Of a DNA stretch of 64,000 nucleotides, positions 2,521 to 43,312 are shown in pieces. The DNA is taken from the NCBI RefSeq assembly GCF_001019715.1, contig NZ_BBXJ01000001.1, forward strand, positions 620,001 through 684,000, given 5' to 3'. A model generated the notes under the pieces. The model was not told the DNA's origin. It worked only from the letters and a program-made list of their open reading frames with translations, and ran no database searches. Source of the stretch: Rodentibacter caecimuris. Its GTDB lineage: Bacteria; Pseudomonadota; Gammaproteobacteria; Enterobacterales; Pasteurellaceae. Position 1 is the stretch's first letter, and each line of letters opens with the position of its first letter. The translations under genes were made by a program, and so were the position numbers.

Positions 2521-2541
2521 TTTATCTTCCTAAAATTATTC

Positions 2542-2634
2542 ACAAACTCGCTTACTCGTTTGTTCCCCCTAAAGGGGTCGTTGGCAAAGCCAACATTCCA
2601 AAAACAGTGTTTTTGTGACCGCACTTTCTGCGGT
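2542..2634 (-). repeat. Cluster of five hairpins between nagB and nagA
   Basis: Five inverted repeats follow one another: ACAAAC/GTTTGT (2542-2563), CCCC/GGGG (2566-2577), GTTGGC-AAA-GCCAAC (2580-2594), CAAAAAC-AGT-GTTTTTG (2599-2615) and ACCGCA-CTTTC-TGCGGT (2618-2634), the last including an uptake signal. None has a convincing T-run in the operon direction. They may slow mRNA decay or form a dispersed intergenic repeat unit. The arms are seen directly; the role is inferred. Confidence 0.75.
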
Positions 2635-7190: not shown

Positions 7191-8213
<1,023 letters not shown>

Positions 8214-42321: not shown

Positions 42322-42432
42322 AGACTATTTCTAGGGTGGTGAACTAAGCAGAATTGGTCTTAACAGCAAGTGGCTTACTGTACGCATCCTTGCGGAATTT
42401 CTACCTAGCTCACCATGGAGGTGTTCTAGTCT
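42322..42432. other. Structured block of nested inverted repeats upstream of narQ
   Basis: Three successive hairpins (ACAGcAAG/CTTaCTGT 42363-42381; CGCA/TGCG 42383-42394; CTAG-CACC/GGTG-CTAG 42405-42429) sit within a possible closing helix AGACTA (42322-42327) with TAGTCT (42427-42432). The closing helix and the third hairpin share bases and cannot form together. On the minus strand it would be part of the narQ leader behind a weak TTGAAA-17-TATGTC promoter. It matches no RNA family I can recognise. The rest of the 42094-42640 gap holds the small RNA candidate and the crp terminator. Confidence 0.5.
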
Positions 42433-42444
42433 GCGCGACATAAA

Positions 42445-42521
42445 ACAATAAAAAAGGTTTTTCAACCTTTTAAGCCACTTTTCAGGAGACCAATCCTGTA
42501 TTCCTACACATTTGTAAGAAT
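42445..42521 (-). ncRNA. Candidate small RNA between crp and narQ
   Basis: A near-consensus promoter directs transcription leftward from about 42521. The predicted ~77-nt RNA has hairpin ATTCTTACA/TGTAGGAAT, hairpin CAGGA/TCCTG with loop UUGGUC, a short open stretch, then terminator AAAAGGTT-GAAA-AACCTTTT with a T-run. The GGUCUCCU segment is complementary to Shine-Dalgarno sequence, as in many Hfq-dependent regulators. No open frame exists in it. crp has its own terminator upstream, so this is not merely the crp 3' end. I do not recognise a known family. Confidence 0.7.
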
Positions 42522-42527
42522 GTGCGT

Positions 42528-42556
42528 ATAATAGAATCCTTTTCCCCTATTGTCAA
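42528..42556 (-). promoter_or_regulatory. Strong sigma-70 promoter of the small RNA
   Basis: On the minus strand TTGACA (42551-42556), 17 bp, then TATTAT (42528-42533). This is one of the two best promoter matches I found, and no protein gene follows it within the next 400 bp. Confidence 0.8.
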
Positions 42557-42640: not shown

Positions 42641-43312
42641 TTATCTTACGCCATAAACAACAATCGTTTTACCATGGGCATAAATCAAATTTTGATCCTC
42701 TAGCATTTTGATAATGCGTCCTACTGTTTCACGAGAACAGCCGACCATTTGCCCAATTTCTTGGCGGGTAATTTTAATTTGCATACCATCCGGATGAGTC
42801 ATTGCCTCAGGTTGTTTGGCAAGGTTAATCAGCGTTTGAGCAATACGTCCGGCAACATCTAAAAATGCCAAATTACTTACTTGGCGAGAAGTATTCTGCA
42901 CCCGACGTGCTAATTGTGCAGTTAAAAACATTAAAATCTCAGGATTAATTTGGATCAATTGACGATATTTTTTATAAGAAACTTCAGCAATCTCGCAAGG
43001 TGTTTTGGTTTTTACCCAAGCCGAGCGCTTTGATCCTTCATCAAACAAACCCGCTTCACCAAAAAATTCCCCCGCGCCGAGATAAGTTAAAATCATCTCT
43101 TTGCCTTCATCATCTTTTGCTGAAACCATCACAGTACCTTTAATTACATAATAAAGCGTGGTTGCATCTTCCCCGGCATAAATCAAAGTTGATTTCGCTG
43201 GGTATTTATGTAAATGGCAATGTGTCAAAAACCAATCTAAAGCCGGATCTCTTGCTGGGTGCTCAGCATGTAATTGTTCCACCTCAATGTCAGCATCAAT
43301 GTAATTTGACAT
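42641..43312 (-). CDS. crp: cAMP receptor protein
   Basis: CRP activates catabolic operons and, in H. influenzae, competence. The 223-residue protein has the cyclic-nucleotide fold with [22 protein letters not shown] in the cAMP pocket and a C-terminal winged helix ([23 protein letters not shown]) that recognises TGTGA. CRP-like sites occur in this window before fucI, hupA and between nanE and siaP. Confidence 0.97.

What the first reader, a model, noticed from the sequence alone, without database searches (positions are those of the whole stretch)
42445..42556. Candidate unannotated small RNA next to crp
Seen: TTGACA-17-TATTAT on the minus strand, then ~77 bases with two hairpins, an exposed GGUCUCCU segment and a terminator with a T-run, no open frame, and a separate crp terminator just upstream. 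Known: many enterobacterial trans-acting sRNAs have this build and expose C/U-rich anti-Shine-Dalgarno seeds. Inferred: a carbon- or respiration-linked regulator, given crp and narQ as neighbours; AGGAGA sites of nanA and fucI in this window are complementary to part of the loop.
Basis: partly seen in the sequence, partly recalled or inferred. Interest (0 to 1): 0.75.

Follow-up and report, generated by a model that had tools for sequence, protein, structure and literature searches.

The report
Stray phage immunity RNA beside crp
What looked like an unknown small regulatory RNA next to the crp gene is the front end of a phage-type "C4" immunity RNA gene that has lost its phage and is kept almost unchanged in Rodentibacter and Haemophilus chromosomes, which suggests the bacteria now use it.

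Summary
The sequence features are real, but the finding is half of a larger object. The 77-nt element (42521-42445, minus) is the leader of a C4 antisense RNA locus. The C4 RNA lies just downstream (42420-42332, minus; Rfam RF01695 at 33.5 bits, cut-off 45; fold z -5.75). The leader carries sites a1 and b1, antisense to the C4 arms a' and b' (8 + 10 perfect pairs; 0 of 1000 shuffled leaders pair as well), like Weinberg's "c4-a1b1" motif. Prophage C4 loci run promoter, a1b1 leader, hairpin, C4, then a2b2 on the start site of an antirepressor gene. Here a2b2 and that gene are missing. C4 matches of this kind (80 bits or more) occur in 42 of 140 Pasteurellaceae genomes: Rodentibacter 12/15, Haemophilus 10/10, the parainfluenzae group 11/11, an unnamed genus 9/9. 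Beside crp in the first three, in nearly all loci examined. Between the window and four Haemophilus loci a1, a' and b' are identical, while fourfold crp sites agree at 36-39%. Rfam does not call it. Identity is about 95% sure. The trans target is inferred: most likely antirepressor mRNAs of matching phages, with a host mRNA as the main rival. The anti-Shine-Dalgarno and respiration reading is not supported.

The parts
42528..42556 (-). sigma70-type promoter TTGACA-17-TATTAT
   Evidence: 11/12 consensus; TTGACA and TATNAT invariant in 21 of 21 aligned loci
42500..42521 (-). leader hairpin 1
   Evidence: fold; 4 of 8 pairs with change on both sides, 97% of cells paired
42483..42498 (-). a1 hairpin CAGGAUUGGUCUCCUG, antisense to the C4 a' arm
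   Evidence: identical (16/16) in all nine loci compared with the window; changed at one position in 4 of 32 loci (L060, L062, L109, L110); 8-bp perfect antisense ATTGGTCT 42494-42487 to C4 42360-42353
42471..42480 (-). b1 site AAGUGGCUUA, antisense to the C4 b' loop
   Evidence: 10-bp perfect antisense to C4 42377-42368; 8-9 of 10 letters kept in four Haemophilus loci; the b1/b' core changes together from AGUGG/CCACU to AGCGG/CCGCU in a fourth genus
42452..42471 (-). leader hairpin 3, terminator-like with T-run in the window; weak or without T-run in most other genera
   Evidence: not reported by the consensus scan
42332..42420 (-). orphan C4-type antisense RNA (17-bp closing stem, inner hairpin, b' hairpin, exposed a' UUAAGACCA)
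   Evidence: Rfam RF01695 33.5 bits, E 1.6e-4; fold z -5.75, 0 of 200 shuffles; 95% mean column identity over 22 loci
42352..42361 (-). a' antisense arm AAGACCAAUU
   Evidence: invariant in 22 of 22 loci; same core letters as prophage C4s such as L117, L118, L121
42366..42378 (-). b' antisense loop GUAAGCCACUUGC
   Evidence: 13/13 identical to 8 of 9 loci compared, 12/13 in L053
42614..42635 (-). crp terminator (separates crp from the element)
42641..43312 (-). crp, conserved upstream neighbour
   Evidence: NCBIfam NF008732 367.4 bits; neighbour in 20 of 22 loci including the window

Best explanation
The locus is an orphan C4 immunity gene of phage origin fixed in the host chromosome. SHOWN BY SEQUENCE: a conserved promoter precedes a leader holding sites a1 and b1, then a hairpin and a C4-type RNA whose arms a' and b' are antisense to a1 and b1; the prophage-type target (a2b2 plus antirepressor gene) is absent. 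INFERRED: RNA polymerase reads through the leader hairpin, RNase P trims the C4 RNA at AU^GGUG, and C4 acts in trans by two-point pairing. INFERRED: its pairing with a1b1 in nascent or free leader limits its own level (feedback by attenuation, or titration by a decoy). INFERRED, least certain: its purpose is to silence antirepressor mRNAs of incoming phages that carry the matching a2b2 type (ATTGGTCT with AAGTGG), so that the host has a resident, prophage-free immunity RNA.
For: Identity: Rfam C4 at 33.5 bits, E 1.6e-4; C4 fold z -5.75; leader-C4 duplex -32.9 kcal/mol against -16.5 (sd 3.2) for shuffled leaders, 0 of 1000; the same promoter-a1b1-hairpin-C4 order in prophage loci. In a 50-locus comparison the 39 phage-type loci pair with their own leader (-26.0 to -46.3 kcal/mol; mean of all non-own pairs -23.7) and 38 of 39 pair with their own downstream stretch better than the non-own mean of -19.0 (down to -40.3); 9 of 11 orphans have the leader partner (-30.9 to -35.1) and no downstream one (-9.1 to -15.5). 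Genes behind four same-a' prophage C4s encode AntA or KilA-N with P22_AR_C domains. Selection: C4 matches of 80 bits or more in 42 of 140 genomes; a1, a' and b' 100% identical between the window and four Haemophilus loci whose crp fourfold sites match at 36-39%. Immunity: a' still equals the a' of living prophages. Of 71 IMG/VR sites with an ATTGGTCT a2, 21 have b2 CTAAGTGGA and 27 could not be classed; one of the 21 is identical over 281 bases to Escherichia phage phiv142-3, where the gene is annotated anti-repressor. The orphan pairs with that target at -31.3, with the two prophage targets of its own genome at -18.2 and -22.2. The exact a+b pattern occurs in the host genome only at the locus itself. 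Prophages with a cognate a2 occur in 0 of 42 carriers and 6 of 98 non-carriers.
Against: The carrier/non-carrier contrast is not significant (one-sided Fisher p 0.11; 0.14 among C4-positive genomes; 0.08 and 0.10 if G155 is added) and ignores kinship. No phage with the exact a2b2 pair was found in any carrier genome; the only one of 140 genomes with it is G036, a non-carrier. The best a+b match is in enterobacterial phages, not known to infect these hosts; a Pasteurellaceae same-a' target (L117) pairs at only -23.9. The duplex to the phiv142-3-type target is a minimum-energy pairing and not cleanly two-site. Whole-molecule cofolding does not discriminate: gain -2.5 with the own leader, 0.0 with the phiv142-3 type, -0.5 with L117, and -0.9 and -2.0 with non-cognate targets. 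Two of 11 orphans (L109, L110, with a changed a1) pair with their leader at -24.5, about the non-own mean, and with the downstream stretch at -21.4. Invariance over genera is also what a fixed host target would give. No expression data.
Confidence: 0.5

Rival explanations
1. Same RNA, different purpose: a domesticated C4 RNA that now regulates one or more host mRNAs in trans, perhaps through the exposed a' segment alone.
For: Invariant a' and b' over several genera and loss of the phage operon; a fixed chromosomal place beside crp in three genera in nearly all loci examined. Precedent: C4-like sRNAs of Acinetobacter baumannii, proposed to target phage and/or host transcripts (PMC5320573, passages seen).
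Against: Exact 10-mers antisense to a' (5 hits, one the locus itself; 6 for the reversed control) and b' (6 hits, two the locus itself; 21 for the control) are not enriched in the own genome, and by eye none of the other eight lies at an evident start site. The exact a+b pattern in 15 Rodentibacter genomes finds, beside the locus, only a few places in four genomes, one of them shared by two. Single-site pairing with mismatches was not searched. a' has kept the phage letters rather than drifting to a new seed.
Confidence: 0.35
2. Relic: a decaying prophage immunity region with no present function.
For: The downstream target is gone; G008 keeps only the leader beside crp; G010 and G013 have nothing there and no 80-bit match elsewhere; a1 is changed at one position in 4 of 32 loci.
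Against: C4 78-79 of 83 letters and a1, a', b' 100% identical in four Haemophilus loci where crp fourfold sites are at 36-39%; 42 of 140 genomes; coordinated b1/b' change in a fourth genus.
Confidence: 0.05
3. One reading: a stand-alone 77-nt trans-acting sRNA with an anti-Shine-Dalgarno seed, linked to carbon or respiration control.
For: Promoter, hairpins and a T-run in the window and most Rodentibacter loci; a terminated short product is possible there.
Against: UCCUG is in a stem; the T-run is not conserved; the most strictly kept leader letters are those of a1, antisense to C4; the downstream gene is not conserved; AGGAGA is common in the window. A free leader could still act as a C4 decoy.
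Confidence: 0.07

Closest known systems
C4 antisense RNA of phages P1/P7 (Rfam RF01695)
   Same: 17-bp closing stem with inner hairpin, b' loop and a' segment, GGU at the 5' stem end, two-site antisense arms; downstream of a promoter and leader
   Different: no a2b2 target or antirepressor operon downstream; chromosomal, crp-linked and conserved across genera; 33.5 bits, below the 45-bit cut-off; the b'/b1 pairing extends past the SD-like core
c4-a1b1 motif (Weinberg et al. 2010, PMC2864571; only the table entry was seen; motif details recalled, supplement not read)
   Same: leader upstream of C4 carrying a1 and b1
   Different: hairpin weak and without T-run in many orphans; not attached to a phage operon
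C4-like Group 1 sRNAs of Acinetobacter baumannii AB5075 (PMC5320573, passages seen)
   Same: C4-like RNAs counted as bacterial sRNAs, with RNA-seq coverage that suggests RNase P-type processing
   Different: 21 similar sequences in one genome with variable a'; here one orphan copy with invariant a'/b', an a1b1 leader and conserved synteny over genera
IsrK of Salmonella prophages
   Same: prophage regulatory RNA; that IsrK shares clan CL00128 with C4 is recalled (one search shows only C4's clan), and APSE-7 records annotate C4 and isrK at one place
   Different: no anti-Q operon or prophage here; IsrK's role was seen only as a table row of a review (PMC12197685)

Membership tests
C4 antisense RNA (RF01695) | covariance-model score at or above the curated cut-off (45 bits) | tested here: not met
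   33.5 bits in the window; none of the orphans in 11 scanned loci or in the nine loci of the fourth genus reaches the cut-off; the one C4 hit in them, L109 at 543-627, is a different copy
C4 antisense RNA (RF01695) | C4 secondary structure: long closing stem enclosing two hairpins and a free a' segment | tested here: met
   model positions 1-87 of 87 spanned; MFE fold with the same layout, z -5.75
C4 antisense RNA (RF01695) | arms a' and b' antisense to paired a and b sites on a nearby transcript | tested here: met
   a1/b1 in the leader, 8 + 10 bp; b1/b' co-change in a fourth genus
C4 antisense RNA (RF01695) | a2b2 target overlapping the RBS of an antirepressor operon downstream | tested here: not met
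   window downstream duplex -14.7, 41 of the other 49 downstream stretches pair better; downstream gene is narQ
C4 antisense RNA (RF01695) | processing of a precursor by RNase P at GGU and function in trans | not testable with these tools
   AUGGUG invariant in 22 loci, processing not shown
c4-a1b1 leader motif (Weinberg 2010) | located upstream of C4 with a1 and b1 sites antisense to it | tested here: met
   comparison with the authors' own alignment was not possible (supplement not read, no Rfam family matched the leader)
Hfq-dependent trans sRNA of enterobacterial type | intrinsic terminator with U-run conserved among homologues | tested here: not met
   T-run missing or reduced in Haemophilus and fourth-genus loci
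Hfq-dependent trans sRNA of enterobacterial type | Hfq binding | not testable with these tools
   no data

The most novel reading that the evidence does not exclude
A temperate-phage immunity RNA has become a vertically inherited host gene: a self-limiting C4 locus (antisense RNA plus its own decoy leader) that stands guard without a prophage by silencing antirepressors of a whole a2b2 class of phages, and has been kept nearly letter-perfect beside crp since before Haemophilus and Rodentibacter split.
Probability: 0.35. Interest if true: 0.8.

Novelty: new variant of a known kind. Interest (0 to 1): 0.58.

Why it matters
C4 RNAs are known as phage parts. A target-less copy that has been kept nearly unchanged in the chromosomes of Haemophilus (records named H. 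influenzae, H. haemolyticus and H. parainfluenzae among them), Rodentibacter and a fourth genus, and that the current Rfam cut-off misses, means a hidden conserved RNA gene in much-studied bacteria. It makes a concrete question testable: do bacteria keep phage antisense RNAs as immunity genes, or recruit them for their own mRNAs? The paired a1b1 leader, whose role is to my knowledge not settled, can be studied here without a phage around it.

Tried and rejected
Rejected: stand-alone anti-SD sRNA (UCCUG in a stem, T-run not conserved); nanA/fucI targets (AGGAGA 17 times in the window); PreQ1 and archaeal RNase P matches in the same Rfam scan (14.1 and 13 bits against cut-offs of 39 and 84); decay relic. 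Led nowhere: IMG/VR scans with the orphan's own a' arm gave 4 hits (contexts not read), 0 and 2 that are prophage C4s; phage BLAST of the orphan gave only chance-level hits, E 0.7; host target 10-mers not enriched; the a2b2 pair with the orphan's specificity in 140 Pasteurellaceae genomes: only G036, a non-carrier. The order-wide sample found matches in 13 of 394 genomes, all in the same four genera (stricter filters, E <= 1e-8). AaHKsRNA82 was first taken for an a1b1 leader, but its match starts downstream of the a1b1 sites. Literature: in the listings seen (20 of 60 papers listed), 68 and 85 I saw no report of a C4 locus beside crp; most subscription papers are not held, the P1 papers of 1992 and 1995 that I asked for were not held, and the Aggregatibacter sRNA paper did not turn up.

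Rows and parts left out: one search used 29 of the prophage-type loci, 10, and 11 orphans (nine of the fourth genus, G130 and the window); L022 (same as the window) and L043 and L046 (cut by contig ends) were dropped, and the listed C4 places without a locus were not used. One search leaves out L060 (promoter cut off). In one search nine of the 21 named loci were compared, eight of them for crp. In one search, 27 of 71 sites had no classifiable b2. One search was misoriented and is replaced.

Full report
WHAT WAS CHECKED. The window belongs to a genome (G000) placed in one genus with Rodentibacter records: G006, 95% identical over the 361-base query, has a contig of the same length as Rodentibacter genomosp. 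2 Ppn422. The promoter is TTGACA-17-TATTAT, 11 of 12. Alone this is not beyond chance (3 found, 2.3 sd 1.5 expected), but TTGACA and TATNAT are invariant in 21 of 21 aligned loci. The 77-nt fold is real (z -3.63). The loop exposes UUGGUC, not GGUCUCCU.

WHAT IT IS. A permissive Rfam scan placed a C4 antisense RNA match (RF01695, 33.5 bits, cut-off 45, E 1.6e-4) on the same strand just downstream, 42420-42332; it folds with z -5.75. The leader holds two stretches that are perfectly antisense to the C4 arms: ATTGGTCT (42494-42487 with 42360-42353) and AAGTGGCTTA (42480-42471 with 42377-42368). The duplex energy is -32.9 kcal/mol against -16.5 (sd 3.2) for shuffled leaders, 0 of 1000 as good; the count of antisense 8-mers (4) is reached by 1 of 2000 shuffles. 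This is the a1/b1 - a'/b' arrangement of C4 loci; Weinberg et al. 2010 list both 'c4 antisense RNA' and 'c4-a1b1' as motifs (PMC2864571, passages seen).

COMPARISON WITH PHAGE C4 LOCI. In 61 genomes (own plus 60 relatives) 32 have a C4 above cut-off. The neighbourhoods printed read: promoter, a1b1 leader, strong terminator-like hairpin, C4, then a2b2 lying on the Shine-Dalgarno and start of a gene. In four same-a' cases tested the gene encodes AntA or KilA-N with P22_AR_C domains. I computed duplexes of each C4 with all leaders and all downstream stretches for 50 loci. All 39 phage-type loci pair with their own leader better than the mean of non-own pairs (-26.0 to -46.3 against -23.7), and 38 of 39 with their own downstream stretch (exception L025, -18.8; non-own mean -19.0), though the own partner is not always the very best. 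Nine of 11 orphans have the leader partner (-30.9 to -35.1) and no downstream one (-9.1 to -15.5). Two (L109, L110), with a changed a1, are unclear (-24.5 and -21.4). The window's C4 pairs with its leader at -32.9; seven other leaders pair better, several of them phage leaders that share a1.

DISTRIBUTION AND SYNTENY. A covariance model of 22 orphan C4s finds matches of 80 bits or more in 42 of 140 Pasteurellaceae genomes: Rodentibacter (g1) 12 of 15, Haemophilus (g7) 10 of 10, the parainfluenzae group (g58) 11 of 11, and an unnamed genus g49 9 of 9 (genus sizes from the list). The sequence context was examined in 32 loci: the window, the 21 named records, the nine of g49 and G130; the other genomes are counted by score alone. 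g7 is named by a contig that equals an H. quentini record in length; g58 by its 91-nt C4 variant, as in the H. parainfluenzae records, which is an inference. g49 may be Aggregatibacter: one of its loci has an Rfam Aggregatibacter sRNA nearby, but such families also match the window, so this is weak. An order-wide sample of 394 genomes adds no further genus. crp is the upstream, same-strand neighbour in 20 of 22 loci including the window, and in G130. The exceptions are L053 and L060; L060 is cut at the locus end, and L013, another stretch of the same H. quentini contig, has crp. In g49 crp was not found within about 4 kb; the upstream neighbour is accA, divergently oriented, confirmed by profile in one locus and by the same N-terminus in the other eight. 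The gene downstream changes: narQ, N-acetylglucosamine PTS, RlmC, Dcu and GMP synthase, a Band 7 protein, each confirmed in one locus. In Rodentibacter, G010 and G013 have no element after crp, G012 and G014 have it elsewhere, and G008 has kept only the leader.

SELECTION. Between the window and four Haemophilus loci, crp fourfold-degenerate sites agree at 36-39%, while C4 is 78-79 of 83, a1 16/16, a' 15/15, b' 13/13 and b1 8-9 of 10; hairpin 1 (12-16 of 22), hairpin 3 (11-14 of 20) and the promoter spacer (9-11 of 17) vary. So the most strictly kept letters are a1, a', b' and the C4 body. Hairpin 1 shows compensatory change in 4 of 8 pairs; the C4 stems hardly vary, so they say little. The b1/b' core is AGUGG/CCACU in 23 of 32 orphan loci and AGCGG/CCGCU in the nine of g49 (b' of L113 read by eye): one compensatory switch, or a second domestication of a related phage type. 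a1 is changed at one position in 4 of 32 loci.

HOW IT MOST LIKELY WORKS. Transcription from the conserved promoter; read-through of a leader hairpin that is a credible terminator in the window but not in most other genera; RNase P-type release of C4 (reported for P1/P7 and suggested by RNA-seq in A. baumannii according to PMC5320573, passages seen; not tested here); trans pairing by a' and b'. Pairing with its own leader is a built-in brake or sponge. For the trans target, the a' letters are still those of living phages: seven non-carrier genomes (G008, G036, G070, G103, G105, G140, G155) have prophage C4s with the same a'. Of 71 IMG/VR sites with an ATTGGTCT a2, 21 have b2 CTAAGTGGA and 27 could not be classed; one of the 21 is identical over 281 bases to Escherichia phage phiv142-3, where the gene is annotated anti-repressor. 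The orphan pairs with that target at -31.3 kcal/mol, with a Pasteurellaceae same-a' target at -23.9, and with the two prophage targets in its own genome at -18.2 and -22.2. Cofolding of whole molecules does not discriminate (own leader -2.5; cognate phage types 0.0 and -0.5; non-cognate -0.9 and -2.0), so structure would have to open first. Cognate-a2 prophages occur in 0 of 42 carriers and 6 of 98 non-carriers (one-sided p 0.11, 0.14 among C4-positive genomes): suggestive, not significant, and uncorrected for kinship. G008, the Rodentibacter that keeps the leader without C4, does carry such a prophage.

HOST TARGETS. Exact 10-mers antisense to a' or b' are not enriched in the own genome, by eye none lies at a clear start site, and the exact a+b pattern finds only the locus itself there. 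Mismatched or single-site targets were not excluded.

VERDICT. Observation mostly right; identity of the object changed from a crp-linked anti-SD sRNA to the a1b1 leader of an orphan C4 locus. Membership in RF01695 by score fails, but structure and two-site antisense pairing are met, and the downstream target, a defining feature of the phage arrangement, is tested and absent. So: it is built like and probably works like C4, and is filed as a host-resident variant rather than as a regular phage member.

Noticed in passing
window 8081-8197 (-) and 2527-2624 (-): Rfam matches to Aggregatibacter sRNA families AaHKsRNA96 (115.3 bits) and AaHKsRNA22 (57.7 bits) in the same window.
   Followed up: no
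G000:C1:2069148-2069236 (-) and 530741-530825 (+) (L020, L021): Two further C4 RNAs above cut-off in the window's genome, with a1b1 leaders and a2b2 targets of other specificity, so probably resident prophages.
   Followed up: partly
L109:442-522 with C4 at 543-627: The Rfam family AaHKsRNA82 (Aggregatibacter sRNA 82) lies between an a1b1 leader and C4 of a prophage-type locus, which suggests that this named sRNA is a piece of a C4 precursor transcript.
   Followed up: partly
downstream of the orphan C4 in window and L052-L072, L106-L115: The gene after the orphan C4 differs between related species while the upstream neighbour (crp or accA) mostly stays: a rearrangement boundary close to the C4 3' end, unexplained.
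   Followed up: partly
G036 (family f1, genus g23): 34 C4 matches in one 2.9-Mb genome (27, with another E limit), many with identical scores.
   Followed up: no
   Followed up: partly
window 42435-42446 (-) and orphan loci: A block like GTTTTATGTCGC between leader and C4 recurs, with some changes, in orphans of four genera; it may correspond to the T-run plus ATGCG of phage leaders.
   Followed up: no
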